Of a stretch of 34,941 nt of DNA, positions 1 to 34,415 are shown piece after piece (the stretch's first letter is position 1; each line of letters begins with the position of its first letter). The notes under the pieces were generated by a model. The model was not told the origin of the DNA. It did not search any database and was given only the letters and a program-made list of their open reading frames with translations. The translations under genes and the position numbers were made by a program. The DNA comes from Opitutaceae bacterium. GTDB lineage: Bacteria; Verrucomicrobiota; Verrucomicrobiia; Opitutales; Opitutaceae. The stretch lies in NCBI GenBank assembly GCA_025360455.1, contig JANYCF010000401.1:1-34941 (forward strand), written 5' to 3'.

Positions 1-2190
1 GGCCTGCGCCTGGTCATCACGTGACTGCGCGGCGAAGGTCAGCCCCTTGAGGACGATGCAATAGGTCGACGCCGCATCCTCGTTTTTAGGATCGTCGGCG
101 CCAGCCGCGACCAGATACGCGGCCGACTCCGCAAAGGCCAGTCCAGCCGAGGCCTCGTCCCGTGCTCCATGGTGAGCCCAGCCCAGAGACATCAGCAGCA
201 TGGCAAATCTTACTTTATCCTTGGTACTCCGCTGGGGATCGGCCATCAGCGGCCGCCCAATGGCAATGGCCTCCTGCATGGCACGAAGTGCCTCGGCGGG
301 CAACGACTGGTTGTCATAGATACCCGCCTGTATCGCCAACGCATACATCAACCCGGCGGCGGTCTCGAAGGTATGGTCACCCGCAGCGACCCGGCGGCGA
401 AGAATGGTCAAGGCCTCCGCCGTCGGCGCGACGGCCTCATCCGTGCGATTTTGCCAGTTAAGCACCGTCCCCAGCAAGCCCAGCGCCAGCGCGCGGTTGC
501 CTTCCGTCGGCTCGGTCACGAGCTCGGCGGGAAGGTGCTGGTAGTAGTCGACCGTGCGGCGGGTTAGTTGCTCGAAGAGGTTGAGCTGCCCGGCGTCAAA
601 AAGTTTGATCGAAAACTCATTGAGCAGGTAGTTCAACAAGCCTTCGGCCTCAAGGCGGGCGGTATCGGCAAGGACCCGGGTTCGCTGGGCTTCCACCTCC
701 GAGTGGAGCGCGGCAGTCTCGGCGGTGCGAGCACGCCGGGAATTGACGATGCCCCAAGCAGCAGCCGCCACCGCGACCACCGCGAGCAGAGCAGCGCCGG
801 CCGCCACGATGCGGGCGCGTAGGAGCGAGCGCCGCGTCGCCACCTCGGCGAGCTGCACGCGGGCCAGCTCGGCTTCGGTTTCCAATCGGCGGCGTTCAGC
901 GGCCTCGGCCGCCTCGCGTTCGCGGCGGGCATCGCGACTGGCACGCACCACCGCGCAGAGCACATCGTGCGTCAGCTCGATGCGGCGCACGTCGAGCCGT
1001 TCCTCAATCCGCAACAGCCGGCGGGACACGAGCACATCGATTGCCGCGGGATCGGCGGCGGCGGCGGCGAGACTTTTGCGCGCGCGTTCGAGCGCGACGT
1101 TCTCGCGGTAGCCCGAGTCGGTAAGGAGATCGTTTTCCACCCAATGGCGCACCGCCGGCGACTGGTCGGCCATCGTGCGCTCGTAGAATTCCGTGAGAAT
1201 TGTCTCCCGCGAACCCGCCAGCAGAGCGGCATCGATCTGCTCGGCATGGGCCGCACGGCGACGGTAATTCAACTCGCGACAGACGAGACTAAGCAACGAC
1301 GGCTCAACTTCCGCCTGCGCCGGATCGCTCCGGCCGGAGACGAATGCCACGATCGCATTCGCCACGTCGTCGGGCACCAGACCGGGCGAAGGTTTCACCA
1401 CAGCCTCGAGCGCCTGCGCGCCGGAGAGTCGGGTCAGGCGCATGCGATTTTGCATGAGCGTTGGCATCGCAGCCTTCAAACTTTCCAGATGAGGCAGATA
1501 ATCTTCGCGCAACGTGATCAGCACGCGGTAATCGCTCCGAGCGAAATCGAACGCTTCGGCGTTTACGGTGCCGGCATCGACGCGAGCCTCGAAGGAGGCC
1601 GGAGCGCGATTTTCCACGAGGTCGGCGAGATCGGCGATGAAGGTCAGGGCGCGCGCCCGAGTCGCGTCGTCCGCCGCGCCGAGAGTAAACAATTCCTCGA
1701 ACTGGTCGAAGACCAGCACGGGGATGAGCTTCTGACCGGAGCCACCTGTGAGCACATCGTCGCGGTGATGAAAATATTCCCGGAGCGATTCGCCGGCCGC
1801 GGCGCTGCCCGGGTGCGACCACTTGCCCATCATCGTCGTTTCGGCTAACACCGCGGGTTTGATCTGTTCGGCGAGCGGCGGCGCCTCGGGTCCGTGATCG
1901 AGCCGCAGGTAGATCGGCACAAAGCCAGTCGTGCGCAGCCGCGGAAAAACACCGGCCTGGAGCAGCGACGATTTGCCGAGGCCGGACTGGCCGAAGAGAA
2001 TCGTGAGCGTCTTGCGTTCGAGCCGGCGGACCAATTCGCGCGCCTCTTCGTCGCGACCGTGGAAGTACGCGCGATTTTCCTCGGTGTAGGAAACCAGGCC
2101 GAGCCAGGGATTGGCCGCGTTGGAGCGACTGCGACAACGTGGTCCGTCGCGCGATTCGTCCCCGACCACGTTTTCGGGCTGCGCCCTCAA
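1..2190 (-). CDS. STAND-family ATPase with membrane segment and TPR-like C-terminus (3' end outside window)
   Basis: The frame is open from about 2190 to the window start (730 codons seen), so the C-terminus is missing. Residues 41-56 match the entry to nSTAND1 domains (NPWLGLVSYTEE, then YFHGRDEE). A P-loop GQSGLGKSS follows at about 67-75 and a Walker B strand VLVFDQFEELF at 158-168. A charged helix leads to one hydrophobic segment at about 460-482, then helical repeats resembling TPRs (520 to the end). STAND ATPases are signal-sensing switches that oligomerise after ligand binding. Here the ATPase would be cytoplasmic and membrane-anchored. It lies downstream of TIR and SIR2-like genes on the same strand, which suggests a shared immune-type pathway. 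The start is uncertain: an in-frame TAG at 2197-2199 limits the N-terminus, and only TTG (2190) or GTG (2169) precede the domain, neither with a good ribosome site. Family call firm, function inferred. Confidence 0.85.
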   Translation of the reverse strand, partial: MRAQPENVVGDESRDGPRCRSRSNAANPWLGLVSYTEENRAYFHGRDEEARELVRRLERKTLTILFGQSGLGKSSLLQAGVFPRLRTTGFVPIYLRLDHGPEAPPLAEQIKPAVLAETTMMGKWSHPGSAAAGESLREYFHHRDDVLTGGSGQKLIPVLVFDQFEELFTLGAADDATRARALTFIADLADLVENRAPASFEARVDAGTVNAEAFDFARSDYRVLITLREDYLPHLESLKAAMPTLMQNRMRLTRLSGAQALEAVVKPSPGLVPDDVANAIVAFVSGRSDPAQAEVEPSLLSLVCRELNYRRRAAHAEQIDAALLAGSRETILTEFYERTMADQSPAVRHWVENDLLTDSGYRENVALERARKSLAAAAADPAAIDVLVSRRLLRIEERLDVRRIELTHDVLCAVVRASRDARREREAAEAAERRRLETEAELARVQLAEVATRRSLLRARIVAAGAALLAVVAVAAAAWGIVNSRRARTAETAALHSEVEAQRTRVLADTARLEAEGLLNYLLNEFSIKLFDAGQLNLFEQLTRRTVDYYQHLPAELVTEPTEGNRALALGLLGTVLNWQNRTDEAVAPTAEALTILRRRVAAGDHTFETAAGLMYALAIQAGIYDNQSLPAEALRAMQEAIAIGRPLMADPQRSTKDKVRFAMLLMSLGWAHHGARDEASAGLAFAESAAYLVAAGADDPKNEDAASTYCIVLKGLTFAAQSRDDQAQA

Positions 2191-2206
2191 ACGCGGCTAC
2201 ACGGTC

Positions 2207-2257
2207 GGTAGGGCGTGACCGCGACGAGTGCAGCAGCCTCGGCGGCTGGGCGCGCCG
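2207..2257. repeat. Dispersed GC-rich intergenic repeat, copy 1
   Basis: About 50 bases starting GGTAGGGCGTGACCGCGACG and ending CTGGGCGCGCCG. A related copy with an inverted partial copy sits at 22048-22137. This one fills the gap between the TIR gene and the STAND ATPase gene and ends just upstream of the ATPase start, so it may have altered the leader of that gene. Repeat relation seen directly by eye; mobility is inference. Confidence 0.7.
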
Positions 2258-2369
2258 TAAAAATGATTGCGGGCACCTCCGCACCTGACCACCTGCGAGC
2301 AGGCTCCTGCAAAAAAATGCGCCTTGTTCGGTCATTGAGCGTTAAAAGTTAAACGTCGAGGGTTGGCAC

Positions 2370-2834
2370 TCACCGGTTACGCCCGGCAAACAGTTCCTGC
2401 AGGCGCCGGGTGAATTCCGGCGTGGGTTCGCCTCCGAGAAGTCGCGCAAAATGCATCGCCTTGAATTTCTCCGGGGCGCTGGCCTCGGCCTCGGTCGTGT
2501 TCTCAATACAGATGGGCAGGAGAAAAACTGCGCCGTCCGCCATACTGCGCGTGCGATCCACGGCGTAGCTCCACTCCCGGCGGAAATAGGCCTCATGCCG
2601 CCGCTGCGTATTGCTGGATATGACCGGCAGAAAAAAGGAGCCGCGGGCGATGTTGCCGCGAATCTTGCGGTCGTAGTCGTCGCCGCTCTCCAGGCGCTCC
2701 ATATCAAACCAGGTGGTGATGCCGGCGGCATCGAGCCCGGCCTTGAGTTTTTGCACGGCAAGCAGATCCTCGCGGGCGTAGCTGATGAAGACGGCGTTCT
2801 CCGGCATCTCGCGGGCGGGCGGAAGGAATCGCAT
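2370..2834 (-). CDS. Stand-alone TIR-domain protein
   Basis: A 154-residue protein that is almost entirely one TIR domain. The first strand motif ENAVFISYARED is at residues 12-23, WFDMERLESGDDY at 42-54, and the segment YFRREWSYAVD at 83-93. E87 there is at the usual place of the catalytic glutamate of NAD-cleaving bacterial TIR domains. Such domains hydrolyse NAD or make cyclic ADP-ribose-type signals. No membrane segment or extra sensor domain is present, so activation must come from a partner. The start ATG at 2834 lies 9 bases after the stop of the SIR2-like gene, indicating co-transcription. A second ATG at residue 10 would also keep the whole domain. The STAND ATPase follows after a repeat-filled gap of about 180 bases. 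Domain call is confident; enzymatic activity is inferred from family. Confidence 0.9.
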   Translation of the reverse strand: MRFLPPAREMPENAVFISYAREDLLAVQKLKAGLDAAGITTWFDMERLESGDDYDRKIRGNIARGSFFLPVISSNTQRRHEAYFRREWSYAVDRTRSMADGAVFLLPICIENTTEAEASAPEKFKAMHFARLLGGEPTPEFTRRLQELFAGRNR

Positions 2835-2843
2835 CGGCGGCGT

Positions 2844-3773
2844 CTAACCCCCGGCGAAGGGGGCGGCGGTCGCGCGCCGTGCCGTCCAGCGGCGGTGCAA
2901 CTCGGCGACAAATTCCTCCGCGCCGGAAAACATCCGCGTGCGCATGCTGACCTGTTGCAAAAAGGACACCAAGCGCACGTCGCCCAGGCTGTGGCTGTCG
3001 GCGAGGATCTCGCCCACGTCGCGCGGATCGGACAGGCGCCGGCGCTTGGTCATGCGCAGGAAAAGCCGGGCCAGCCAATTGGAGAAATCGCTGCCAATGA
3101 CGAGCAGGTGACTGTGTTCGAGGGCGTGGAAAAGTTTCTCCGGCGTCAGGTGTTCGCTCTGCAACGCGCAGATGAACTCCAACATGTCCTCGTCGGAGAT
3201 GACGTAGGGAGGAGAAGCCGAGAGACGACCGAGGAGATGGTAGACGACGGGACGCGGGAGATCGTCGCGCTCGACCGGCAGATCAGCCACACGGTTCGGG
3301 GCGTAGGCGATGACCTCGGTGTTCGCCGCGCCGCCGAAGCGAACCTGATTGATCGCCTGCTCCATGAGCGGATCGAAAGTCATCGAGACGTAGAGATTGA
3401 AATCCGTGATCTCCGCAAGTTGCCGCAGCGGCAGTGGCGGAGCGAAAGTCGACTCCCGCATGATCGTGCGCAGCCGCGTGTAGGCCTCCTCGCGCCGACC
3501 ATGATTGCTCAGGTAGCTGCAAAGGACATCGTTCAGAGTGGGCGGTTGGGGCAGCGACTTAAGATCGACGTTGAGCCGAGCAGCGAGTTTTTCGGCGAGC
3601 CATTCCTGGAGCAGCCGCGGACCGGTCTCGGTCTCGACCTTCAGCAATTCCGGCCCGATGATTGGGATGACGCGCTTTTCCTCGATGTAGTTGAGCAAGT
3701 CCTCCCAGACATCATCGCTGAAGGGAACAGCCGAGACCGACGGGGTGGCAGAGCGGGCAGATTCGGCATTCAT
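2844..3773 (-). CDS. SIR2-like domain protein
   Basis: A 309-residue protein matching the divergent SIR2-like families of bacterial defence loci. The nucleotide-binding entry VIPIIGPELL is at residues 36-45, VSMTFDPLMEQAI at 129-141 (position of the usual TTNYD motif), VYHLLGRL at 177-184 (position of HxHG) and LLVIGSDFSNWLARLF at 223-238. H179 is kept, but the asparagine normally needed for NADase activity appears to be threonine (T132 in MTFD). It may therefore be a weak enzyme, or a binding or regulatory subunit. It is the first gene of a minus-strand run with TIR and STAND genes and diverges from a SLOG-membrane gene. ATG at 3773; no clear ribosome-binding site. Family membership is fairly sure; role is inferred from context. 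Confidence 0.8.
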   Translation of the reverse strand: MNAESARSATPSVSAVPFSDDVWEDLLNYIEEKRVIPIIGPELLKVETETGPRLLQEWLAEKLAARLNVDLKSLPQPPTLNDVLCSYLSNHGRREEAYTRLRTIMRESTFAPPLPLRQLAEITDFNLYVSMTFDPLMEQAINQVRFGGAANTEVIAYAPNRVADLPVERDDLPRPVVYHLLGRLSASPPYVISDEDMLEFICALQSEHLTPEKLFHALEHSHLLVIGSDFSNWLARLFLRMTKRRRLSDPRDVGEILADSHSLGDVRLVSFLQQVSMRTRMFSGAEEFVAELHRRWTARRATAAPFAGG

Positions 3774-4000
3774 AGGCGTGAGGAGGGTGACAAAAAGAAA
3801 AACTCAAAATCGTAGCGGATGGCGTTCAGTAGCATCCTAAAACGGCTGCGCAGAAGCCTGAACGCAAACATTGCCTTGAAAGACACTACCAAGCGTGGGG
3901 GTGGATACCGGCATGAGTCGTCGAAGTTCATGCAGTGTAAGCTTAGGCCTTGCCAGCCAAAACCCCCACTGGCATCCGTTTGAATCGTCGCTCCGACCGA
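3774..4000. promoter_or_regulatory. Divergent intergenic region of the putative defence island
   Basis: This 227-base gap separates two divergent starts (SIR2-like, minus; SLOG-membrane, plus), so promoters for both sides must lie here or close by. I see no convincing -35/-10 pair or clear operator palindrome. It is less GC-rich than the flanking genes near 3780-3880. Confidence 0.4.
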
Positions 4001-5497
4001 ATGTCCTCTCCTGCCGCCCCCCACTCCAGTCAACTGCCCTTGTTTCACGTCGTTGGGTTTTCTGGTCACCGGCATCTGGGCAATCCGGCTGGCGTGGCGG
4101 CGGCAATCCGCACCGCACTCGAATCGTTGCGCAAAGAAGCTCCTGGCGAATGGATCGGATTGTCCTCGGTCGCCATCGGCAGCGACCAGATGTTTGTCGA
4201 CCAAGTGCTAGGACTGGGGATGTCGTGGCACGTCATTCTGCCCCTGCCCAAAGCGGAATTTCAAAAGGATTTCAACGCGGACGAATGGGCGGACGTCGAA
4301 CAGATGATTACCCAAGCCGAACATATGCGCGTGATCTCGGAAAACGGTGCGCGGGAAGACGCCTATCTCGATTGCGGCATGGAGACGGTCAACGGTGCGG
4401 ACCTGTTGCTGGCCGTGTGGGATGGCGCGCAAGCTCGTGGCAAAGGCGGCACCGGCGACGTGGTGGACTACGCCAAATCGCTGGGGAAACCGGTACTGGT
4501 CATCGACGCCAACACGCTGGAAGTCCGCCGCGAGAATTTCGATAAGCTCAAACGTGATGATCGCAGCCTTACCCAGCTCAACAAACTACCCGCCGCTTCC
4601 GCCGGCTGGGGCGACAATCCCTTCAATGCACCCGCCAATATTTTTGCCTTCCAGCAAAAGTGCGACTTCGCGGCCAGCCACGGCGCCCCGCAATTTCGGC
4701 GGCTGATCATTGGCACCGTGATCTTGCATGTCCTCGCCACGCTGATCGCAGCCGGAGCGCTCTCGTTTGACCTGCACTTCGCTATCATCCCCTGGTTGAA
4801 ACTACTCTGCCTCATGGGAGCCCTCGGGGTCGCGTTGCTGTTGAAACACCAACACCACTCGCTGCACAACTGGGTGCATTGCCGACTCGCGGCGGAGTTC
4901 TGCCGATCGGCGCTCGCCACCTGGGGCCTGCCCCGCGGCACGCCACTTTTCGAGGAGTGCGATGTGGCCAGCGCGCGCGGCCTGAACCGCACCTTGCATA
5001 TTTTGCACAGCCGCTCCGCCACAGCGCAGCCGGTGCCCATGGAAGAATTCAAAAGAATCTACATCGAGAAACGCATCGACGACCAGCTGAAGTATTACCG
5101 GCGCCAGGAAGCCCGCGCCCTGCCGCTCTTCGCTCGGCTCAAACTGGGATTTTGGATCGCCACGATTCTCGCCCTCGGTTGCACGCTCGCCTACGCCGTG
5201 TGCCACACGGCGCACTTGGAAGTGCCGCCGGGGATAACCACCGCCGTGTTTTATTTCCTGCCCATTTCATTGCCGGTGATTGCAGCGTCGTTCATCTCGC
5301 TGATTTCGATCAACGATCTGCAAAGGCGCGTCGCGCGCTATCGGGAAATGCAGCTCATGCTGGAAGACAGCCGCAAGCATGCGCTCTTTTGCCAGACGTG
5401 GAACAGCCTCGAACGAATCGTCATGAAAACCGAGCGCGCCCTCCGCCAGGAAATGCTCGAGTGGCACTCGATCACGAGCTTTGCCGAGTCGCATTGA
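4001..5497 (+). CDS. SLOG-domain protein fused to a four-helix (2 x 2TM) membrane module, SLATT-like
   Basis: A 498-residue protein. The N-terminal SLOG/DprA-like Rossmann domain shows VVGFSGHRHL at 17-26, SVAIGSDQMFVDQ at 56-68, GADLLLAVWDG at 132-142, ARGKGGTGDVV at 145-155 and GKPVLVID at 162-169. SLOG domains bind nucleotide-like ligands. It is followed by two pairs of hydrophobic helices (about 235-257, 262-282; 383-403, 412-436). A conserved-looking soluble segment lies between the pairs, and a C-terminal helix (TERALRQEMLEWHS) resembles the tail of SLATT/DUF4231 proteins. In such conflict systems the membrane part is thought to form a pore or damage the membrane after ligand sensing. 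I chose ATG 4001 because an upstream TTG at 3950 adds only a non-domain tail. It is divergent from the SIR2-TIR-STAND genes. Domains confident; pore role inferred. Confidence 0.85.
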   Translation: MSSPAAPHSSQLPLFHVVGFSGHRHLGNPAGVAAAIRTALESLRKEAPGEWIGLSSVAIGSDQMFVDQVLGLGMSWHVILPLPKAEFQKDFNADEWADVEQMITQAEHMRVISENGAREDAYLDCGMETVNGADLLLAVWDGAQARGKGGTGDVVDYAKSLGKPVLVIDANTLEVRRENFDKLKRDDRSLTQLNKLPAASAGWGDNPFNAPANIFAFQQKCDFAASHGAPQFRRLIIGTVILHVLATLIAAGALSFDLHFAIIPWLKLLCLMGALGVALLLKHQHHSLHNWVHCRLAAEFCRSALATWGLPRGTPLFEECDVASARGLNRTLHILHSRSATAQPVPMEEFKRIYIEKRIDDQLKYYRRQEARALPLFARLKLGFWIATILALGCTLAYAVCHTAHLEVPPGITTAVFYFLPISLPVIAASFISLISINDLQRRVARYREMQLMLEDSRKHALFCQTWNSLERIVMKTERALRQEMLEWHSITSFAESH

Positions 5498-25371: not shown

Positions 25372-25781
25372 ACGGGTAATCATCCAATTAACCCGCAATT
25401 TTTCCGGGTCAATCGCGATACGGCCCAAAGGCCGGGCGCATCGCAGTTTTTGGTACTGGAGCATGTTTCCCTCGTAAGTTGCGTTACCGGGCGAATGCGA
25501 CATCGGCCACTTGCCTCGCAACGTGGCGCGACCAGCGCGCCACCAACCCAGATTCGAGGACTGCCCAAAAACCGGGATGATGGTCACGCAATGGGGAATT
25601 TCGTCATCACTGATGAGGAAATCAGCGGTTGTTACGCTATCCCCAAAGCAAACGGCACAGCGGAAAATCACCGAATCGCAACAATTGCGCACAAACCGCG
25701 GTTGACCGGACGGTGAGAGCATCGCAGAAACCTTACGCGCGGGCCTGCGTGACCACTCGATTTTCCACCCCACTACCCCGC
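25372..25781. other. Divergent intergenic region between the export operon and the cas operon
   Basis: A gap of 410 bases. It should contain the cas promoter and the export-operon promoter, though no strong -35/-10 pair is seen. A hairpin with perfect 8-base arms, GTGGCGCG (25523-25530) and CGCGCCAC (25536-25543), is the only clear structure; a smaller palindrome CATCACTGATG lies near 25605. No CRISPR repeat copy is visible. Confidence 0.45.
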
Positions 25782-28061
25782 ATGCCCTACTACGCGCACA
25801 CGGCCGTTCACCCCGACGGCACCCGCGATCAGAATGAATCGCACTGGCAACCGCTAGCCGTGCATTTGCGCAACGTCGCCGATCTCGCCGCCCAATTCGC
25901 CGCGCCCTTCGGTGCCAGCGAAGAAGCCCGCCTCGCCGGATTGCTGCATGATCTGGGGAAATACTCCGCTCGCTTTCAACAACGCCTCCGCGACCCCAAT
26001 ATTCACGGAATCAATCACTGGTCGATGGGCACTCTTGCGGCCGCGAATCGGAAGCAAATCTCCGCAGCCTTTGCAATTGAAGGCCATCACACAGGGATGC
26101 CCGCATTCGCTGAAAACGATATCGAAACGACCCTCGAAGCGCTCAAGCCACGCATTGCAAATCTTCAAATCCCGCTATCCGCTGAAAAACTAAACGGTTT
26201 TCCTGAAACCCTCGACGAACTCACCGTGCGCCTAATCGCTGACGGCATTCATCCGCCCGACCTCACCTTGACGAAATCCTCAGCCAAAGATTTCACGACC
26301 GCTCTTCGCACGCGGATGATTTTCTCTTCACTCGTCGATTCCGACTTTCTCGACACGGAACAACACTTCGACGCGGTTCAGGCCGCCCGCCGTACTCCTG
26401 TCTTGCTTCAGCCCGAGACCGCCTTGCCCCACTTACTCAGCGCGTTGGCCAAGAAATCCTCAGTCGGATTCGTCAACGAGCTACGTCGCCAACTTCTTCA
26501 CGACGCACTTGCCGCCGCCGAACACCTACCCGGACTTTTCACGCTCACCGCGCCCACCGGTAGCGGCAAAACTCTGGCCTCTCTTGCCTTCGCTCTTCGC
26601 CACATCGCGCACCACAACCGTACCCTCGCGCCCAACGATCCGAACCGTCTCCGCCGCATCATTGTCGTCATTCCCTTCACCAGCATCATCGAGCAAACCG
26701 CGCGCATCTACCGCGAGCTCTTCGAGCCCCATTTCGGCTCCGACTACATTCTCGAACATCACAGCGCGGTCGTTCCCCGCGAACGCCCCGCCGACAAGAA
26801 CCAAGACGCCGAGGACGAGCGCCTCCGCCGCGCCCGTCTCGCCCAAGAAAATTGGGATGCGCCCATCGTTGTCACGACCAACGTGCAGTTCTTCGAGAGC
26901 CTCTTCGGCCATCGCCCTTCGCAGTGCCGCAAGCTTCACAATATTTCCCGCTCCGTCGTGCTTTTCGACGAAGTGCAAACCTTGCCCGCACGACTCGTCC
27001 CTTCGCTCCTCTCATCCGTTACGGGATTGGTGCGCGATTACGGTATTACCGCCGTCTTTGGCACCGCTACCCAGCCCGCTTTCGCTGCCGCTGCCGCCGC
27101 GATTCCCGGTGGCTGGCAACCAGTGGAAATCTCCTCACAACCCAAGATCATGGCCGACGGCTTGCGTCGCACACGCATCGTCCTCCGGCCCGTTGATCAG
27201 CAGCCGACTTGGCCTGAGCTCGCGACCGAGATTTCCCAACACCGCCAAGTGCTCTGCGTCGTGAATCTCAAACGGCACGCCCACGAACTGTTTTCCGCAC
27301 TGCCAGCCGAAAATCGTTTCCACCTTTCCTCGGCCATGTGCCCCGCGCATCGCCAAGTGCAGCTTGCGGAAATCCGCCGCCGTCTCGACCGCACCCACGA
27401 CGAACCATGCCGCCTCATTTCCACCCAGCTCATCGAAGCGGGTGTCGATGTCGACTTCCCCCGCGTCTATCGTGCCGCCGGCCCGCTCGATTCCATCATC
27501 CAAACCGCCGGTCGCTGCAACCGCGAGGGCCTCAATGCCGAGCCCGGCGAGGTCACCATCTTCCGCCCCCTCGACCACCGCCTGCCGCCCGGTGCCTACA
27601 AGCAAGCGGCAATAATCACCGAAGCATTCCTCACCGAGAACCCCGGCATCGACCTTCACGATCCCGCAACCTACGCCTCTTATTTCGCCCGGCTATACGG
27701 CACGCTTGGCCCCACTTCCGCCCAAGACGATCCCGCCTACGCCGCATCCGCCGCGCTCCACTTCCCGCTCGCGCACCGCGAATGCCCACTCATCGGCGAT
27801 GAGACCCGCTCCGTCGTCGTACGTTGGGGCGACGGCGAACGTCTCGTCACCCAGCTGCGCCACGAAAAGCATCTCTCCCGCGACGATTGGCGACTCATCC
27901 AACGCTTCTCAGTGAACTTCTACCTCTCCGAATTTTCCCTAGCCCTTGCCCGGGGCATCATCGTGCAACCACTCCCCGACACCGAATTTTATTTCTGGAA
28001 CGGTCATTACGACGAATACCTCGGCGTCTCCGAACCCGCCCTCAACCAATATGCTCCATGA
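25782..28061 (+). CDS. cas3: Type I-C CRISPR helicase-nuclease Cas3
   Basis: A 759-residue protein that would degrade DNA bound by Cascade. The N-terminal HD nuclease has LLHDLGKYSARFQQ (54-67), with H56-D57, plus NHWSMG (78-83) and EGHHTG (100-105). The SF2 helicase has Walker A LTAPTGSGKT (255-264), DEVQ box VLFDEVQTLP (393-402), FGTATQPAF (426-434), TQLIEAGVDVDFP (548-560) and QTAGRCNREG (574-583). First gene of the cas operon; its stop overlaps the cas5c start (ATGA, 28058-28061). ATG 25782 is chosen because the frame upstream to 25629 is not HD-domain sequence. Confidence 0.96.
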   Translation: MPYYAHTAVHPDGTRDQNESHWQPLAVHLRNVADLAAQFAAPFGASEEARLAGLLHDLGKYSARFQQRLRDPNIHGINHWSMGTLAAANRKQISAAFAIEGHHTGMPAFAENDIETTLEALKPRIANLQIPLSAEKLNGFPETLDELTVRLIADGIHPPDLTLTKSSAKDFTTALRTRMIFSSLVDSDFLDTEQHFDAVQAARRTPVLLQPETALPHLLSALAKKSSVGFVNELRRQLLHDALAAAEHLPGLFTLTAPTGSGKTLASLAFALRHIAHHNRTLAPNDPNRLRRIIVVIPFTSIIEQTARIYRELFEPHFGSDYILEHHSAVVPRERPADKNQDAEDERLRRARLAQENWDAPIVVTTNVQFFESLFGHRPSQCRKLHNISRSVVLFDEVQTLPARLVPSLLSSVTGLVRDYGITAVFGTATQPAFAAAAAAIPGGWQPVEISSQPKIMADGLRRTRIVLRPVDQQPTWPELATEISQHRQVLCVVNLKRHAHELFSALPAENRFHLSSAMCPAHRQVQLAEIRRRLDRTHDEPCRLISTQLIEAGVDVDFPRVYRAAGPLDSIIQTAGRCNREGLNAEPGEVTIFRPLDHRLPPGAYKQAAIITEAFLTENPGIDLHDPATYASYFARLYGTLGPTSAQDDPAYAASAALHFPLAHRECPLIGDETRSVVVRWGDGERLVTQLRHEKHLSRDDWRLIQRFSVNFYLSEFSLALARGIIVQPLPDTEFYFWNGHYDEYLGVSEPALNQYAP

Positions 28062-28780
28062 ATAACAACCCTATCTATCTCCGCGCCTGGGGCGACCTCG
28101 CCTGCTTCACCCGTCCCGAGATGAAAGTCGAACGCGTCAGCTATCCCGTCATCACCCCCAGCGCCGCCCGGGGCCTGCTTGAAGCCATCCTCTACAAGCC
28201 GCAGTTCCGCTGGTGCATTCATCGCATCGCCGTGCGCCGCCCCATCCAATTCCTCGCCTTCCGCCGCAACGAGGTGAAGTCGAAAGTCTCGCGCAACCCC
28301 GAACCAATTTTCGCCGACGAAGATCGCACCCAGCGTAATACCCTCGCCCTGCGCCAAGTCGAATACGTGATTGAGGCCAGTCTTGTGCTCACCCCGCTGG
28401 CTGGCCGTCCTCGCCTCAGCCAGTACGGTGCTGACGAACCCACTGGCGACGACAATCTCGGCAAATATTACGGCATGGCCCGCCGCCGCATGGAGCAAGG
28501 CCAGTGTTTTCATCAACCCAGCTTCGGCTGCCGCGAATTCCCTGCCCACTTCGAACTCGCCACCGCCTCAGCCATGCAAGTCACCCCCGGCCTGAACGCC
28601 GACGCCGATCTCGGTCTCATGCTCTACGACGTGTTCGATTTGGATATCGGTGACGCATGGCAAGCCGGCAAGATCGAGGCCCGCCCGCAAATTACGTTCT
28701 TCCGCGCCACGCTCAAAAACGGCATCGTGGAAGTCCCCGCTTGGTCCGAAGTCCGCAAGCAACTCGGAGGTGCAGCATGA
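28058..28780 (+). CDS. cas5c: Type I-C Cas5c, crRNA-processing endoribonuclease
   Basis: A 240-residue protein. In type I-C there is no Cas6, and Cas5c cuts the pre-crRNA and caps the 5' handle. The RAMP entry YLRAWGDLACFTRPEMKVER is present at 7-26, followed by SYPVITPSAARGLLEAIL, the family-typical helix. The end has the expected ARPQITFFRATLKNGIVEVP. The usual catalytic set (Tyr, Lys, His) is most likely Y28 or Y46, K23 and nearby histidines; this cannot be assigned with certainty. Coupled by four-base overlaps to cas3 and cas8c. Confidence 0.95.
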   Translation: MNNNPIYLRAWGDLACFTRPEMKVERVSYPVITPSAARGLLEAILYKPQFRWCIHRIAVRRPIQFLAFRRNEVKSKVSRNPEPIFADEDRTQRNTLALRQVEYVIEASLVLTPLAGRPRLSQYGADEPTGDDNLGKYYGMARRRMEQGQCFHQPSFGCREFPAHFELATASAMQVTPGLNADADLGLMLYDVFDLDIGDAWQAGKIEARPQITFFRATLKNGIVEVPAWSEVRKQLGGAA

Positions 28781-30555
28781 TGCTCCAAGCTCTACTCCAT
28801 TATGCCGAACGCAAAATGGTCGAAGATCAGTCGTTTTCCGATCCAGACTTTGAGCCCGTGGATTTACATTGGCTCATCCAAATCGACGAAGCCGGAAAAC
28901 TTTCGGGCGATCCGCTTTCCCTCATAACGATCGAGGGAAAAAAGAAGAAGGTGAAGAAATCCCGTCGGCCTGCGACTTCGGTGAATGAGCTTTCTGTTCG
29001 ATCTCTCGAAAAAGCCAAAAGCTATTTCCTCTGCGACTCGCTCGAACGAGTAATCCTGTTGTTTGACGAAGGAATCGAGTCCGTCGATCCTCTCGCGCAC
29101 GCCCGGCAGCGATATTTCAAAAGTTTGCTCACCGAAGCTTCCAACGATGCGCCTAACGTAACTTCAGCCATGCTAGCATTCCTCAATAGCCAGGAAGAAC
29201 TCGCACACTGCCGTGAAAAGCTCAACGAAGCTCGCGCCGACTCCGGACATAACTGCACCTTCCAAGTAGCAGGTGGCAATGTGCTGGACGATCAGCGCTT
29301 GATCCAATTCTGGCGAAAGCGCCGCTCCGCCAGCCAAAGCTCGAAGGGCGAGAAGCAGATTTGCTTGGTCACCGGCATCCTATCCGAAACCATTTCCACG
29401 ACTGAGAAAATCAAGGGAGTCGGCGCACAGGACACGAATCTCATTTCAGCCAATGAGAAGGCGTTTCAGTCCTACGGCCTTGATCAAAGCAAGAACTCGC
29501 CGATCAGTGCCCGCGCCGAACAACTGACTCGGGCCGCCTTAAATGAACTGATAAAAAAGGCATTTCGCACCGGAGATAAATCCCCAATCTACCACCTCAG
29601 CTGGACGAAGGAGCCAGCCCCCACGGATCTCTTCGCACTGCTCACCTCTGCCGACGACGCTGAGGTCAAAAACTTCCAGACTGCTCCAAAAAACGGAATG
29701 GCCCCCGCCAAAATTGAAGCAAATGCCTACTACGCTATGAGCCTGTCAGGTAATGGAGGACGCATTATCATCCGCGATTGGCTCGAATCCACGGTCCAAG
29801 ACATCGAAACGAACATACACGGCTGGTTTGAGGATCTGGAAATCATCGAGACCGACGGTGCCAATACAAAATATGCCTTCAAGGTTTGGTCTCTGCTTGC
29901 CGCCCTTGTTCCAAAGAAAGACGGAAAGCCTGATTTCGATAAACTTCCCCCTCAGGTCGCCACCCAGTTCCTCTACGCCGCCCTGCGCGGCACAGCCCTG
30001 CCTCAGACCGCGCTAACAGCAGCCATTCGCCGTCAACAAATCGAAAACAAACAGCCCGGCGACCATGCCGATCCACGACTTAATCCCGCACGCATGGCGC
30101 TCATCCGTGCGGGCCTCAACCGCTCTCTTTCAACCATCACCCCAAAAATAATTATGACTGCATCACTCGATTCTGATTCCTCCGACGCCGCCTACTTGTG
30201 CGGCCGTCTCTTCGCCGTGTTCGACCGCCTGCAATATCTCGCTCTAGGCGGGGTGAATGCCGGTGTGGTCGAACGCTTCTACGCCAGCGCCAGTGTCACC
30301 CCTGCGCTCGTCATGGGTCGTCTGTTCCGCAACGCCCAATTCCATCTCGCGAAAGCCGGTGGCGGCATCGCCGAGAATGCGCGCAAGGACTTCGAGGAAA
30401 TTTCCTCCGCTCTCGGCAAGACCTTCCCCGCCTCGCTCGACTTAGAAGCCCAAGGCCGCTTCGCCCTCGGCTACTACCACCAAAAAGCTGATTACCGCCG
30501 CCGCACTGCCGAGCGCAAAGAAGCCAAAGAAGCTGCCGAAGCCACCACCACTTAA
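28777..30555 (+). CDS. cas8c: Type I-C large Cascade subunit Cas8c
   Basis: A 592-residue protein of the Cas8c/Csd1 family, the large subunit that recognises the PAM and recruits Cas3. Typical stretches are VDLHWLIQIDEAGKL (28-42), CLVTGILSETISTTEKIKGV and YYAMSLSGNGGRIIIRDW. The ATG at 28777 is preceded by GGAGG seven bases before, the best ribosome-binding site of the operon, and overlaps the cas5c stop. The lysine/serine-rich segment KKKKVKKSRRPATS (94-107) is unusual. The 3' third probably also encodes Cas11c (see separate entry). Confidence 0.95.
   Translation: MMLQALLHYAERKMVEDQSFSDPDFEPVDLHWLIQIDEAGKLSGDPLSLITIEGKKKKVKKSRRPATSVNELSVRSLEKAKSYFLCDSLERVILLFDEGIESVDPLAHARQRYFKSLLTEASNDAPNVTSAMLAFLNSQEELAHCREKLNEARADSGHNCTFQVAGGNVLDDQRLIQFWRKRRSASQSSKGEKQICLVTGILSETISTTEKIKGVGAQDTNLISANEKAFQSYGLDQSKNSPISARAEQLTRAALNELIKKAFRTGDKSPIYHLSWTKEPAPTDLFALLTSADDAEVKNFQTAPKNGMAPAKIEANAYYAMSLSGNGGRIIIRDWLESTVQDIETNIHGWFEDLEIIETDGANTKYAFKVWSLLAALVPKKDGKPDFDKLPPQVATQFLYAALRGTALPQTALTAAIRRQQIENKQPGDHADPRLNPARMALIRAGLNRSLSTITPKIIMTASLDSDSSDAAYLCGRLFAVFDRLQYLALGGVNAGVVERFYASASVTPALVMGRLFRNAQFHLAKAGGGIAENARKDFEEISSALGKTFPASLDLEAQGRFALGYYHQKADYRRRTAERKEAKEAAEATTT
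30154..30555 (+). CDS. Probable internally initiated small subunit Cas11c
   Basis: In type I-C systems the small subunit is known to be made by internal translation of the cas8c 3' end. Here an in-frame ATG at 30154 would give 133 residues (MTASLDSDSSDAAYLCGRLF and on), near the size of known Cas11c, with a helical composition. A second in-frame ATG at 30094 would give 153 residues. Neither has a clear ribosome-binding site, so the exact start is uncertain. Confidence 0.4.
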   Translation: MTASLDSDSSDAAYLCGRLFAVFDRLQYLALGGVNAGVVERFYASASVTPALVMGRLFRNAQFHLAKAGGGIAENARKDFEEISSALGKTFPASLDLEAQGRFALGYYHQKADYRRRTAERKEAKEAAEATTT

Positions 30556-30565
30556 TCTTTCGATC

Positions 30566-30625
30566 TCTCAACCGTCCGTCTCTCAAATCTCCGTTTCTCA
30601 AATTCTCTAATTTCTAATCACAACT
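30566..30625. repeat. Low-complexity TCTCAAAT-rich spacer before cas7c
   Basis: Several TCTCAA, CTCAAAT and TTTCTAAT units in the 81-base gap between cas8c and cas7c. Looks like a degenerate relative of the AT-rich repeats found around cas4, cas1 and cas2. Confidence 0.45.
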
Positions 30626-30636
30626 CCAATCCTCCC

Positions 30637-31506
30637 ATGTCCCTACCCATCCAATCCCGCTACGACTTCGTTTATCTCTTCGACTGCAAAGACGGCAACC
30701 CCAACGGCGACCCTGATGCCGCCAACTCCCCCCGAGTTGACCCGCAGGATATGCACGGCCTCGTCTCCGACGTCTGCCTAAAACGCAAAGTCCGCAACTT
30801 CGTTCAAATCGCCAAGCCCGGAGCCGACGGCTACGATATTTTTATCCAGCAAAGCGCCGTTCTTAACGACCGCATTCAAAAAGCCCACGATGACCTTGGC
30901 CATAAAATCGATGGCAAGAAAGGCACGACCCGCGAGCAAGTCAGCTCTGCCCGCACCAAAATGTGCTCCCGTTATTACGATGTCCGCACCTTTGGGGCAG
31001 TCATGTCCACCGGTGTAAACGCCGGCCAAGTACGTGGCCCCGTACAGGTGAGCTTTAGTCGCTCTATCGACCCCGTGCTTCCGCTCGATGTCAGTATCAC
31101 CCGCATGGCTGTAGCCGAGGCGAAGGACGCCGAATCACCCAACCAAACGATGGGCCGCAAAAACCTGATCCCCTATGGCCTCTATCGCTGCCACGGTTTC
31201 ATCAGCGCCCATCTCGCCACAGACACCATTTTCACCGAAACCGATCTTGAGCTTTTCTGGCAGGCGCTCTCCCAAATGTTCGATCACGACCGCTCCGCAG
31301 CTCGTGGGACAATGGCACCGCAAAAGCTCATCGTCTTCAAGCACACCTCCGCTCTCGGCAACGCCCCGGCGCACAAGCTTTTCGAGCGTGTTACTGTCGC
31401 TTTGAAACCTACCGTGAAATCAGCCGCCCGGCAATTCTCCGATTACGACGTTACCATAAACGAGCAAAACCTCCCTGTCGGTATAACCATTCAGTCTCTC
31501 CTGTGA
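30637..31506 (+). CDS. cas7c: Type I-C Cascade backbone subunit Cas7c
   Basis: A 289-residue Cas7c/Csd2 protein; several copies coat the crRNA. The family N-terminus YDFVYLFDCKDGNPNGDPDA (9-28) and PRVDPQDMHGLVSDVCLKRK are clear. RYYDVRTFGAVMSTG and RGPVQVSFSRSIDPVLPLDV complete the RNA-binding RAMP fold. Stop overlaps the GTG start of cas4 by four bases. ATG 30637 has no ribosome-binding site, as is usual in this window. Confidence 0.96.
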   Translation: MSLPIQSRYDFVYLFDCKDGNPNGDPDAANSPRVDPQDMHGLVSDVCLKRKVRNFVQIAKPGADGYDIFIQQSAVLNDRIQKAHDDLGHKIDGKKGTTREQVSSARTKMCSRYYDVRTFGAVMSTGVNAGQVRGPVQVSFSRSIDPVLPLDVSITRMAVAEAKDAESPNQTMGRKNLIPYGLYRCHGFISAHLATDTIFTETDLELFWQALSQMFDHDRSAARGTMAPQKLIVFKHTSALGNAPAHKLFERVTVALKPTVKSAARQFSDYDVTINEQNLPVGITIQSLL

Positions 31507-32204
31507 GTCCTACGGCATCAGTGCCGTCTCCCTTCTCTGCGGCCGGGAGCAATCCCCTGCCGCTCTCTGCCCTGAACGACTTCCTCTTCTGCCCGCGGCG
31601 GGCGGGGTTGAAGTTCATCGAGGGCCTGCGCGGGGAGAACGAGCACACAGTCATCGGCGATCTCGCCCACGAAAACGTGGACTTCCCCGGCTACGAGCAA
31701 CGCGCAGGCTGGACGCTGCTGCGTGCCCTGCCGCTTTTCTCCGACAAACTCGGACTCTCCGGCAAGGCGGACCTCATCGAGGTGCACCTCGATGAATCTC
31801 AAATGGCAAATTTGAAATCTGAGATTCGACCGGTCGTGCGGGAAGCACGGCCCGTGGAGTACAAGAAAGGCCCGAAGCGCCGCTTCGACAACGACGAGGT
31901 GCAGCTCTGCGCGCAGGCGCTTTGTCTGGAGGAAATGTTCGGCATCACCGTGCCAGCCGGTGCGATCTTCTACGCCCAGTCCGAGCGCCGCGCCGAGGTC
32001 ATTTTTGACGAGGCCCTCCGCCAGCTGACGCTGTCCGCCATTTCAAATCTCAAATCTCTCATCTCAAATGCCGCCATCCCAGCCGCAGAGCTAAAACCCC
32101 AGTGCGAAGGCTGCTCACTCCACGAAGTCTGCCTGCCCGAACTCGCCCGCTCCGCCAGCGCTTGGCGCGCGGCGGAAACCCGCCTCTTCACCCCGGTGGA
32201 CTGA
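31503..32204 (+). CDS. cas4: Cas4 exonuclease for spacer acquisition, carrying repeat-derived insertions
   Basis: A 233-residue Cas4 that trims pre-spacers at the PAM side. The [4Fe-4S] cysteines are C30 (FLFCPRR), C201, C204 and C210 (CEGCSLHEVC). Nuclease residues are in LSGKADLIEV (85-94), PVEYKKG (117-123) and DEVQLCAQALCLEEMFG. GTG 31503 is the start, overlapping the cas7c stop. Two segments, residues 98-109 and 179-190, are encoded by copies of the AT-rich repeat that otherwise lies between genes (31794-31827 and 32038-32070). Both fall in regions that vary among Cas4 proteins as I know them, so function may be kept. Confidence 0.95.
   Translation: MSPTASVPSPFSAAGSNPLPLSALNDFLFCPRRAGLKFIEGLRGENEHTVIGDLAHENVDFPGYEQRAGWTLLRALPLFSDKLGLSGKADLIEVHLDESQMANLKSEIRPVVREARPVEYKKGPKRRFDNDEVQLCAQALCLEEMFGITVPAGAIFYAQSERRAEVIFDEALRQLTLSAISNLKSLISNAAIPAAELKPQCEGCSLHEVCLPELARSASAWRAAETRLFTPVD
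31794..31827. repeat. AT-rich repeat inside cas4 (a)
   Basis: GAATCTCA at one end and TGAGATTC at the other, with AAATTTGAAATCT between: a palindrome-like copy of the cas-operon repeat, translated in frame as residues 98-109 of Cas4. Confidence 0.7.
32038..32070. repeat. AT-rich repeat inside cas4 (b)
   Basis: Contains TTTCAAATCTCAAATCTCTC, a tandem-like variant of the repeat, translated in frame as residues 179-190 of Cas4. Confidence 0.6.
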
Positions 32205-32268
32205 CGTCCCTCCCTCCTTTGGAATCACAATCCACGCCCGCTTCCCGAAAAACCACTCCACCAACCTC

Positions 32269-32300
32269 AATCTCAAATCTGCAATTTCAGATTTCATATC
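32269..32300. repeat. AT-rich repeat (c), left flank of the four-helix-bundle gene
   Basis: Starts AATCTCAAATCTGCAATTTC and matches the copy at 32855-32886 in 30 of 32 positions. It stands 22 bases before the ATG of the four-helix-bundle gene. Confidence 0.8.
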
Positions 32301-32322
32301 CCCCACCCCAGCCCCCTACCCC

Positions 32323-32856
32323 ATGCCCACCTATCAACGCTTCGAAGATCTCCCCGTCTGGAATGCCGCCGCCCAACTCTACGACCAAGTCGATGACTTC
32401 ATCGACCGCGCTCCGCCCCGCCTGCGCCATTCCTTCCGTGACCAGCTCGAGCGTGCGACGCTTTCCGTCTCCAACAACATCGCCGAAGGCTTCGAGCGCG
32501 GGACGACGAACGAGCTGCTGATGTTCCTCTACATCGCCCGCAGCTCCGCCGGCGAAGTCCGCTCCATGCTGACTGTCGGCTCCCGCCGGCCCTACCTCGC
32601 AAAATTCAAAACTGAGATTTCAGATCTCATAAAGCTCGCCGAGTCCTGCTCGCGCCAATTGCGCGGTTGGGCCGACTCCCTGCAAAACTCCGACATCACC
32701 GGCCCACGACACCTGAACGACAAGTCGCGGACCACCTATCAGAAAGGCAAGGCCCGCGAGTCCGGCGCAGCTGATTTCCAAAAGCTGGTCGCCCAGCACC
32801 TCGCGCCCGATCATCCGCTGCATCCCAGTCGCCGGCCACAGGGCCGAGGCCGTTAA
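32323..32856 (+). CDS. Four-helix-bundle protein (23S rRNA IVP / bAvd family) inserted in the cas operon
   Basis: A 177-residue protein. Residues 1-120 are the S23/IVP-type four-helix bundle: YQRFEDLPVWNAAAQLYDQV (4-23), LERATLSVSNNIAEGFERGT (42-61), FLYIARSSAGEVRSML (68-83) and a final helix to about 120. Family members lie in rRNA intervening sequences or, as Avd, in diversity-generating retroelements; they bind nucleic acid. The usual length is about 115-125, so residues 121-177 are an extra basic tail (DKSRTTYQKGKARE, RRPQGRGR). Residues 94-103 are encoded by a copy of the local AT-rich repeat. The gene splits cas4 from cas1, has repeats on both sides, and is not a known Cas protein. No reverse transcriptase is nearby. 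Confidence 0.85.
   Translation: MPTYQRFEDLPVWNAAAQLYDQVDDFIDRAPPRLRHSFRDQLERATLSVSNNIAEGFERGTTNELLMFLYIARSSAGEVRSMLTVGSRRPYLAKFKTEISDLIKLAESCSRQLRGWADSLQNSDITGPRHLNDKSRTTYQKGKARESGAADFQKLVAQHLAPDHPLHPSRRPQGRGR
32602..32630. repeat. AT-rich repeat inside the four-helix-bundle gene (d)
   Basis: AAATTCAAAACTGAGATTTC then AGATCTCAT: a diverged copy of the cas-operon repeat, read in frame in the last helix. The match is partial. Confidence 0.45.
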
Positions 32857-32886
32857 TCTCAAATCTACAATTTCAGATTTCAAATC
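32855..32886. repeat. AT-rich repeat (e), right flank of the four-helix-bundle gene
   Basis: Starts AATCTCAAATCTACAATTTC; near-identical to 32269-32300 in the same orientation, so the gene lies between direct repeats. It overlaps the stop codon of that gene (32854-32856). Confidence 0.8.
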
Positions 32887-32911
32887 GGCGCGAAGCCAAA
32901 ATCGACCGCCG

Positions 32912-32935
32912 TTCTCAAATCTGAAATAGCGAATT
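32912..32935. repeat. AT-rich repeat (f), before cas1
   Basis: TTCTCAAATCTGAAATAGCG and onward, a half copy of the repeat 18 bases before cas1. Confidence 0.6.
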
Positions 32936-32953
32936 ATAATTCCGCTCCGCGCC

Positions 32954-33988: not shown

Positions 33989-34006
33989 CCGGGCGTTGCG
34001 CTCGGT

Positions 34007-34040
34007 ATCTCAAATTTCAGATCTGTAATTTCAAATTATC
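34007..34040. repeat. AT-rich repeat (g), after cas1
   Basis: ATCTCAAATTTCAGATCTGT followed by AATTTCAAATTATC, 18 bases after the cas1 stop. Confidence 0.65.
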
Positions 34041-34049
34041 AAGCCCCCC

Positions 34050-34073
34050 ATGATCGTCCTCGTCACCAGTATG
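34050..34073 (+). pseudogene. Possible remnant of a cas2 start
   Basis: ATGATCGTCCTCGTCACC encodes MIVLVT, very like the start of Cas2 proteins (MLILVTYD in the intact gene 69 bases downstream). The frame then runs into repeat sequence and stops at 34101-34103. It is likely a duplicated or displaced cas2 5' end separated from the present gene by a repeat copy. Short, so chance cannot be ruled out. Confidence 0.4.
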
Positions 34074-34075
34074 CA

Positions 34076-34108
34076 CTCTCAAATTTCAAATCCTCAAATC
34101 TGAAATCC
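34076..34108. repeat. AT-rich repeat (h), before cas2
   Basis: CTCTCAAATTTCAAATCCTC followed by AAATCTGAAATCC, ending 10 bases before the cas2 ATG. Confidence 0.65.
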
Positions 34109-34118
34109 TTCCCACCCC

Positions 34119-34415
34119 ATGCTCATTCTCGTTACCTACGATGTCTCCACCGTGAACGCCAAACCCGGCGCACGCCGGTTGCGCCGCGTGGCCAAGGTGT
34201 GCGAGTCCTACGGCATCCGCGTGCAGAAATCCGTGTTCGAATGCCAGGTCGGCTCAACCGAATGGGTACAGCTCCGCGCCAAACTGCTCGATGAGATCAA
34301 GCTCGACGAAGACTCGCTGCGTTTCTACTTCATTGACCAGACCGACCGGATGCGCATCGAACACCATGGCGCAGACAAACCCCTCGATCTGGAAACCGAT
34401 GCTCTGATCGTGTGA
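34119..34415 (+). CDS. cas2: CRISPR integration factor Cas2
   Basis: A 98-residue ferredoxin-like protein. The first strand MLILVTYDVSTV carries the conserved aspartate D8, and RRLRRVAKVCESYGIRVQKS and VFECQVGSTEW follow as in type I-C Cas2. It pairs with Cas1 as the structural core of the integrase. It is the last gene before the leader and array. ATG 34119 follows a CCCACCCC leader with no ribosome-binding site. Confidence 0.96.
   Translation: MLILVTYDVSTVNAKPGARRLRRVAKVCESYGIRVQKSVFECQVGSTEWVQLRAKLLDEIKLDEDSLRFYFIDQTDRMRIEHHGADKPLDLETDALIV

What the first reader, a model, noticed from the sequence alone, without database searches (positions are those of the whole stretch)
1..5497. SIR2-like + TIR + STAND ATPase facing a SLOG-membrane effector: candidate Thoeris-like modular immune system
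Four adjacent genes hold the parts of NAD-based signalling immunity on separate proteins: TIR (E87 kept), SIR2-like, STAND sensor/switch with membrane anchor, and a divergent SLOG domain fused to four membrane helices. In Thoeris a TIR makes a nucleotide signal bound by a SIR2-SLOG effector. Here SLOG is attached to a membrane module instead, which suggests TIR signal, then SLOG sensing, then membrane disruption, with STAND as trigger. I do not recall this exact set as a characterised system, but I cannot search.
Basis: partly seen in the sequence, partly recalled or inferred. Interest (0 to 1): 0.85.

Follow-up and report, generated by a model that had tools for sequence, protein, structure and literature searches.

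The report
TIR-to-SLOG membrane defence module
Next to a TIR immune gene, an NLR-like sensor and a likely inactive sirtuin domain, this bacterium carries a membrane protein with a nucleotide-binding head; the same pairing recurs across two bacterial phyla, which suggests a Thoeris-like alarm system that ends in membrane damage.

Summary
SIR2-like and TIR are one fused protein in 50 of 50 readable relatives; here an in-frame TAG splits them. A nSTAND1 gene follows in 48 of 51 loci; in the other 3 the contig ends first. By alignment the SIR2-like domain has lost both sirtuin catalytic residues (Asn to Thr in 59 of 59; His to Leu or Phe in 59 of 59), so it is probably not an NADase. The TIR catalytic Glu is invariant. 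The facing gene is SLOG plus two SLATT domains (four membrane segments), a predicted pore former.

The decisive evidence is comparative. In 150 genomes of the window's family this TIR family and SLOG-SLATT occur together (47 both, 7 TIR only, 4 SLOG only, 92 neither), usually as near neighbours, with or without SIR2-TIR. In an independent gammaproteobacterial set lacking the near SIR2-TIR, 17 of 25 SLOG-SLATT genes have a TIR gene within 2.4 kb; 35 control regions (697 kb) have none.

Best reading: a Thoeris-like system with one SLOG-SLATT receiver and one or several interchangeable TIR sensors; SIR2-TIR/nSTAND1 is one such module. It is a new variant of a known kind. Signal chemistry and pore formation are inferred.

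The parts
1..2190 (-). nSTAND1 NTPase with a hydrophobic helix and the start of a C-terminal sensor region; 3' end cut by the contig end
   Evidence: PF20703 5.8e-33; full-length relative in L003 has 1071 aa, with a sub-threshold TPR_12 match (E 0.0026) in its C-terminal part; 48 of 51 loci have it 3' of SIR2-TIR
2370..2834 (-). TIR domain: C-terminal half of the SIR2-TIR protein, here behind an in-frame stop; catalytic-type Glu at residue 87
   Evidence: PF13676 8.6e-18; Glu kept in 134 of 134 related TIR domains of 90 bits or more; SPARTA and SARM1 TIR relatives by sequence and fold
2844..2846 (-). in-frame TAG in the SIR2-TIR linker; the 50 relatives that reach the TIR have no stop here
   Evidence: Another interrupted copy, G351, has its TAG elsewhere, inside the SIR2 domain
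2844..3773 (-). SIR2-like domain with TTTFD-type motif (SMTFD in the window) in place of T-x-N-(Y/W/F)-D, and HLLG in place of the HG motif
   Evidence: PF13289 8.7e-8; Thr at the Asn place in 59 of 59, Leu (57) or Phe (2) before the Gly, and an invariant His two residues earlier; 7 of 7 other SIR2_2 proteins of relatives keep Asn; fold matches ThsA, DSR2, KomC, Avs5
3774..4000 (.). intergenic stretch between the divergent genes; no sigma-70-type consensus promoter found
4001..5497 (+). SLOG + SLATT_3 + SLATT_1 protein: predicted nucleotide receiver with a four-segment membrane module
   Evidence: Pfam; AlphaFold2 mean pLDDT 85.4; SLOG fold YpsA Z 19.0, ThsA SLOG Z 9.0; alignments A2, A3

Best explanation
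A Thoeris-like antiviral module. The nSTAND1-TPR protein senses an invader and brings SIR2-TIR together; the TIR domain then turns NAD+ into an ADP-ribose-type signal; the SLOG head of the facing protein binds that signal; its SLATT membrane segments then assemble into a pore or otherwise disrupt the membrane, which stops the infection. In related genomes the same receiver stands beside other TIR-TPR sensors, single or in arrays, so one receiver can listen to several sensors. Shown: domains, fusion, gene pairing, conserved residues and predicted folds. Inferred: the trigger, the signal and membrane disruption. The SIR2-like domain is probably structural or ligand-binding, not the killer.
For: SLOG-SLATT and this TIR family occur together in 150 genomes of the window's family: 47 both, 7 TIR only, 4 SLOG only, 92 neither; Fisher p 1.5e-26, not corrected for relatedness. 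Of 46 mapped loci, 30 have a close SLOG-SLATT (480 bits or more); 21 of these 30 have a TIR gene within 3 kb (13 of the 21 at 59-251 bp), and the genomes of the other 9 carry the TIR elsewhere. Independent set: 25 SLOG-SLATT loci (400 bits or more) in the family of Lysobacter L025 whose genomes lack the near SIR2-TIR; 17 have a TIR gene within 2.4 kb, against 0 hits in 35 control regions of 696,535 bp. The genomes of the 8 unpaired ones all carry a TIR_2 gene elsewhere, against 2 of 8 genomes without SLOG-SLATT. Five gammaproteobacterial partner TIR-TPR proteins tested match Pfam ThsB_TIR above its cut-off (L166, L167, L169, L170, L168:2927). TIR Glu invariant, 134 of 134 and 29 of 29 domains of 90 bits or more. 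PMC11204291 (passages read): Thoeris is one ThsA with one or several ThsB, and TM-macro ThsA is thought to act on membranes. SLATT proteins are called predicted pore formers and one is required for DRT10 defence (PMC12632851, passages).
Against: No biochemistry or phage assay. 9 of 30 close SLOG-SLATT genes in the window's family and 8 of 25 in the L025 family have no TIR neighbour in the fetched stretch; most of those 8 lie in one syntenic place and may count as one event. Of the 16 lower-scoring loci (distant copies and contig-edge fragments) 13 have no TIR of the searched types nearby. 7 of 54 TIR-carrying genomes have no SLOG match. G409, in the L025 family, has a distant SIR2-TIR match (155 and 60 bits) and no A2 match. 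In many Gammaproteobacteria SIR2-TIR/nSTAND1 and SLOG-SLATT lie on different contigs. The TIR models were seeded from neighbours of SLOG-SLATT, so other TIR families could be missed in the controls; the Pfam TIR_2 search of 16 genomes (0-4 hits each) suggests a low background all the same. The window's own SIR2-TIR is interrupted and its STAND incomplete.
Confidence: 0.6

Rival explanations
1. SIR2-TIR with nSTAND1 is a self-contained NLR-like NADase: STAND activates the TIR, which depletes NAD+ and kills directly; SLOG-SLATT is a separate defence gene that shares the island.
For: SIR2-TIR and nSTAND1 are far more tightly linked to each other (48 of 51 loci) than to SLOG-SLATT (in the fetched stretch of 12 of 51 loci). 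TIR proteins that deplete NAD+ themselves are known (PMC12847820, passage). G409 has a distant SIR2-TIR without SLOG-SLATT.
Against: All 18 genomes with near SIR2-TIR among 150 of the window's family have an A2 match (3 of them only weak SLOG matches), and so do 7 of 7 with near SIR2-TIR in the L025 family, against 33 of 132 and 25 of 142 of the others (33 counted at E 0.001, 25 at 400 bits). Where adjacent, the place recurs (facing, or downstream of nSTAND1).
Confidence: 0.22
2. SLOG-SLATT is a receiver or channel with a physiological role (stress or signalling, not antiviral), and the TIR-TPR arrays are sensors of cell state.
For: Mostly one SLOG-SLATT match per genome; several loci of the window's family share flanking genes, some without TIR neighbours; no match in 50,697 phage records and no match covering 80% of the protein in 72,556 plasmid records.
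Against: Patchy distribution within genera, high identity of SIR2-like across phyla (71-75%) and fast divergence of the STAND protein (49-56% over long matches against 78-88% for SIR2-like within Opitutae) look like defence genes moving between lineages.
Confidence: 0.13
3. Chance neighbours in a defence island; no functional tie.
For: The window contig also carries a CRISPR-Cas operon.
Against: Pairing recurs in different clades with different TIR families and against a zero-hit control.
Confidence: 0.03

Closest known systems
Thoeris type I (ThsB TIR + ThsA SIR2-SLOG)
   Same: TIR partner, SLOG receiver, gene adjacency, one receiver with one or several TIR genes; the SIR2-like fold is among the closest to ThsA
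   Different: SLOG is fused to tandem SLATT membrane domains instead of SIR2; SIR2-like is fused to TIR and lacks, by alignment, the Asn and His that matter in ThsA (N112, H152; PMC7272460, passages)
Thoeris type II (TIR + TM-macro ThsA)
   Same: TIR signal and a membrane-bound receiver protein as output (PMC11204291, passages)
   Different: receiver head is SLOG, not macro; membrane part is SLATT x2
SLATT-containing systems (TIR + SLATT in Firmicutes phages; GAP1-N1 systems; DRT9/DRT10)
   Same: SLATT as predicted pore-forming effector, in some cases next to TIR (PMC9503650, PMC7159879, PMC12632851, PMC12483538; passages)
   Different: in those passages no SLOG head fused to SLATT, no SIR2-TIR/nSTAND1 and no TIR-TPR array is described
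Avs5 (SIR2-STAND) and TIR-STAND-TPR proteins
   Same: SIR2 or TIR coupled to a STAND NTPase (Avs5 by fold); a TIR-STAND-TPR protein is described as a validated single-gene system in PMC9122126 (passage)
   Different: effector-type domains and STAND are on two proteins, and SIR2 and TIR sit together on one

Membership tests
Thoeris (any type) | TIR gene with catalytic Glu next to the receiver gene | tested here: met
   Glu in 134 of 134 and 29 of 29 domains; a TIR gene within 3 kb in 21 of 30 and within 2.4 kb in 17 of 25 loci
Thoeris (any type) | one receiver with one or several TIR genes | tested here: met
   7 tirA genes in the 19.9-kb stretch around one SLOG-SLATT gene (L134); the window itself has one
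Thoeris type I | SIR2-SLOG receiver (ThsA) on one protein | tested here: not met
   SLOG is fused to SLATT; SIR2-like is fused to TIR
Thoeris type I | SIR2 catalytic Asn and His | tested here: not met
   by alignment only: Asn place is Thr in 59 of 59; residue before the Gly of the HG motif is Leu (57) or Phe (2); an invariant His lies two residues earlier. Not checked residue by residue on a ThsA structure
Thoeris type II | TM-macro receiver | tested here: not met
   Pfam finds SLATT_3 and SLATT_1 and no macro domain in the receiver
Thoeris (any type) | NAD-derived signal made by TIR and bound by the receiver | not testable with these tools
   needs biochemistry
SLATT family | Pfam SLATT domains above cut-off | tested here: met
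   PF18181 29.0 (cut-off 26.3), PF18184 26.5 (26.3); NCBIfam SLATT models below their cut-offs
SLOG superfamily | SLOG fold | tested here: met
   YpsA Z 19.0, DprA Z 14.9, ThsA SLOG Z 9.0 on the predicted model
STAND NTPases | nSTAND1 domain above cut-off | tested here: met
   115.5 bits, cut-off 27.1
PADLOC systems | matches to models for SIR2-like, SLOG-SLATT and nSTAND1 parts | tested here: not met
   none for P0002, P0003, P0004, the full nSTAND1 protein of L003, or the SLOG-SLATT proteins of L026 and L038

The most novel reading that the evidence does not exclude
A shared-receiver immune network: one ligand-gated SLOG-SLATT channel, built on a plan like that of SLOG-headed TRPM channels (analogy; TRPM chains appear in the fold list at middling Z, the ADP-ribose link is recalled), integrates signals from many interchangeable TIR sensors, including an NLR-type SIR2-TIR/nSTAND1 module with a pseudo-sirtuin domain. 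At some loci the SLOG output is swapped for a TPR-S plus cyclase-like protein, so that a TIR signal would be converted into a second messenger. This would be a further Thoeris type with plug-in outputs.
Probability: 0.3. Interest if true: 0.85.

Novelty: new variant of a known kind. Interest (0 to 1): 0.62.

Why it matters
It would add a SLOG-gated membrane output to TIR signalling, show that one receiver can serve many TIR sensors (TIR-TPR, ThsB-like TIR-TPR, SIR2-TIR with nSTAND1), and give a direct way to test what tandem SLATT domains do. Named isolates with the genes exist (for example Lysobacter profundi CHu50b-3-2 and Rhodanobacter sp. B05), so the model can be tested now.

Tried and rejected
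Rejected: four separate proteins (SIR2 and TIR are fused in relatives); SIR2-like as NADase effector (catalytic residues lost by alignment); a plain chance neighbourhood. Corrected on checking: I first took the invariant His of the SIR2-like domain for the catalytic one; the HG motif of other SIR2_2 proteins aligns two residues later, where this family has Leu or Phe.

Tried without result: PDB sequence searches for the SIR2-like and SLOG-SLATT parts gave no significant relative; consensus promoters in the intergenic stretch; phage records; plasmid records (one distant SIR2-TIR, 29%, in a 2.56-Mb Paraburkholderia caribensis replicon; 25 records for the receiver, none covering 80%, the 15 listed matching only the SLOG head). 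The original SLATT/SLOG paper (Burroughs 2015, recalled) is not held, so it may already list SLOG-SLATT beside TIR. Paper searches showed no description of this module in their listings; only listings and the passages named were seen, no whole paper. The cyclase-like reading of the alternative receiver rests on its sequence and one weak match (3mr7, E 0.0034); Pfam gave only TPR-S and MAP3K_TRAF_bd for these proteins. More distant relatives of that protein (L152, L159, L160, L161) have no TIR of the searched types in their stretches (models, listing). Absence of other folds from the structure lists is not used as evidence. In one search the family list also held three members of this SIR2-TIR family (L239, L241, L243), left out of the 7 of 7; L240 and L245 are one protein, counted once.
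Full report
What is in the window. The window is the contig C352 of a draft genome (405 contigs). Minus strand: SIR2-like (2844-3773), TIR (2370-2834), nSTAND1 protein (from 2190 to the contig end). Plus strand: SLOG + SLATT_3 + SLATT_1 (4001-5497). Pfam confirms TIR_2, SIR2_2, nSTAND1 and both SLATT domains above their cut-offs. The SLOG head shows there only as a sub-threshold YpsA match, but the AlphaFold2 model (mean pLDDT 85.4) matches B. subtilis YpsA with Z 19.0 and the ThsA SLOG domain with Z 9.0. Hydrophobic windows fall into four groups, which fits two SLATT pairs.

SIR2-like and TIR are one protein. One scan of genome contigs gave 51 loci with the SIR2-like protein: Opitutae (about 78-88% identity), Gammaproteobacteria and Burkholderiales (71-75%) and one Rokubacterial MAG (49%). 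In 50 of 51 the TIR follows in frame with no stop in the linker; L050 ends before it, and L044 has one stop elsewhere in the SIR2-TIR stretch. The window has an in-frame TAG (2844-2846) in the linker. One other interrupted copy, in G351, has its TAG inside the SIR2 domain, not in the linker. Selection on both halves of the window gene is strongly purifying. A distant, still fused copy with a following nSTAND1 gene lies in Paraburkholderia caribensis (29%). nSTAND1 follows in 48 of 51 loci, in five of them (L005, L007, L009, L010, L011) after a gap of about 0.5 kb, which holds a small gene in the three that I looked at (L005, L009, L010); in L004, L050 and L052 the contig ends first.

Active sites. 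Over 59 distinct SIR2-TIR reading frames the TIR Glu is kept in the 56 that reach it. The place of the SIR2 Asn is Thr in 59 of 59. The residue before the Gly of the HG motif is Leu in 57 and Phe in 2; an invariant His lies two residues earlier. Seven other SIR2_2 proteins of relatives all keep Asn at that place and His before the Gly. In ThsA, N112A and H152A abolish NAD+ cleavage (PMC7272460, passages). The SIR2-like domain has the fold of ThsA, SPARSA, DSR2, KomC and Avs5 (single-domain matches with Z about 14.6-16.6; model mean pLDDT 75.3), so a binding or assembly role is likelier than NADase activity. A residue-by-residue match to a ThsA structure was not computed.

The receiver gene travels with TIR genes. 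SLOG-SLATT lies in the fetched stretch beside SIR2-TIR in 12 of 51 loci: facing, on the 5' side (L002, L008, L013, L015, L017, L038, L043), in L002, L008 and L013 with a TIR-TPR gene between, or downstream of nSTAND1 (L026, L036, L040, L046, L049); many loci are short. Over 53 handles of SIR2-TIR genomes (51 distinct genomes: G190 repeats G066 and G186 repeats G080), 48 have an A2 match: 38 of at least 100 bits and 10 weak; 5 have none. In 150 genomes of the window's family: 47 with both TIR and SLOG, 7 TIR only, 4 SLOG only, 92 neither. Profile A1 also matches stand-alone TIR-TPR genes through its TIR half, and A2 also finds the SLOG part of other proteins. In 149 genomes of the family of Lysobacter L025, all 7 with near SIR2-TIR have SLOG-SLATT of at least 400 bits, against 25 of the other 142; G409, one of these 142, has a distant SIR2-TIR match (155 and 60 bits) and no A2 match. 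These tests ignore common ancestry. Within genera presence and absence often go together (genus g1: 5 with both, 2 with neither among those listed), but there are discordant members (for example G353 in g5 and G321 in g90 with TIR only, G237 in g88 with SLOG only).

The pairing is wider than SIR2-TIR. Maps of fetched neighbourhoods show SLOG-SLATT mostly head to head with TIR-TPR genes, often arrays. Of 46 mapped loci 30 have at least 480 bits; 21 of these have a TIR within 3 kb, 13 of them at 59-251 bp; the genomes of the 9 others (G341, G285, G328, G287, G326, G250, G283, G324, G035) have TIR matches elsewhere. The 16 lower-scoring loci, distant copies and contig-edge fragments, are different: 13 have no such TIR in their stretch, the others have one at 104 bp, 1.6 kb and 5.9 kb. 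In Gammaproteobacteria the partner is often another TIR-TPR family that matches Pfam ThsB_TIR.

An independent set was then fetched: the 25 SLOG-SLATT loci (400 bits or more) of the L025 family whose genomes lack near SIR2-TIR. 17 of 25 have a TIR gene within 2.4 kb, usually the next gene. 35 control stretches at fixed positions (27 from genomes of that set, 8 from the window's family; 696,535 bp) have none. The TIR models were seeded from earlier SLOG-SLATT neighbours, which favours them in the test set. The 8 unpaired ones lie mostly in one syntenic place, and all 8 genomes hold a TIR_2 gene elsewhere, against 2 of 8 SLOG-less genomes; TIR_2 genes are rare in those 16 genomes (0-4 each).

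Variable output. In L006, L011 (genome G080), G154 and G305 the facing place is held by a protein with TPR-S, a SLOG-like stretch and a cyclase-like end (weak cyclase match). This suggests that the SLOG receiver can be coupled to different outputs. More distant relatives of that protein (L152, L159-L161) have no TIR beside them.

How it most likely works. By analogy with Thoeris (one ThsA, one or several ThsB; PMC11204291, passages) the TIR is the signal maker and SLOG the receiver. [quoted passage not shown] TIR + SLATT gene neighbourhoods were noted in Firmicutes phages (PMC9503650, passages), and SLATT genes beside nucleotide-related effectors in GAP1-N1 systems (PMC7159879, passages). So the chain sensor, TIR signal, SLOG binding, membrane disruption is the best-supported reading. 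The nSTAND1 protein is one of several sensor types.

Novelty. PADLOC has no model for SIR2-TIR as a whole, SLOG-SLATT or this nSTAND1 protein at the thresholds used. Published Thoeris outputs that I saw named are SIR2-SLOG, TM-macro and caspase-like (PMC12847820, passages). A SLOG-SLATT output would be a new variant. The founding SLATT/SLOG paper could not be read, so the bare association may already be listed there.

Noticed in passing
window 25629-34795: CRISPR-Cas operon with Cas3 (25629-28061), Csd1/Cas8c (28657-30555) and Cas1 (32954-33988), followed by CRISPR-type repeats at 34608-34795 (spacing 72-73 nt); looks like type I-C (the type is recalled).
   Followed up: partly
L168:11510-18815: Four very similar TIR-TPR genes in a row, about 600 aa each, beside a SLOG-SLATT gene and two ThsB-like TIR-TPR genes.
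   Followed up: partly
L006:2-1882, L077:10310-12181, L157:14305-16188, L158:8374-10257: TPR-S + SLOG-like + cyclase-like protein in the place of SLOG-SLATT, facing TIR genes or SIR2-TIR.
   Followed up: partly
L234:5888-7330: A TPR-S/MAP3K_TRAF_bd gene upstream of the distant SIR2-TIR of Paraburkholderia caribensis.
   Followed up: no
L005:9417-9788, L009:2317-2715, L010:9443-9841: A small gene between SIR2-TIR and nSTAND1, Pfam 23S_rRNA_IVP in L005 and alike by eye in the two others.
   Followed up: no
L117:11160-11756 and similar genes in L003, L008, L013, L081, L138, L140: A PRiA4_ORF3 gene near or beside SLOG-SLATT in several loci of the window's family (in L003 beside a TIR-TPR gene), likely shared synteny; Pfam was run on the L117 copy only.
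   Followed up: no
L082:5365-9405: A DUF4062-nSTAND1 gene (nSTAND1 300 bits) next to a distant SLOG-SLATT gene, with no TIR of the searched types in the stretch.
   Followed up: no
L247:1-1008 (G351): A second interrupted SIR2-TIR gene, with its TAG inside the SIR2 domain.
   Followed up: partly
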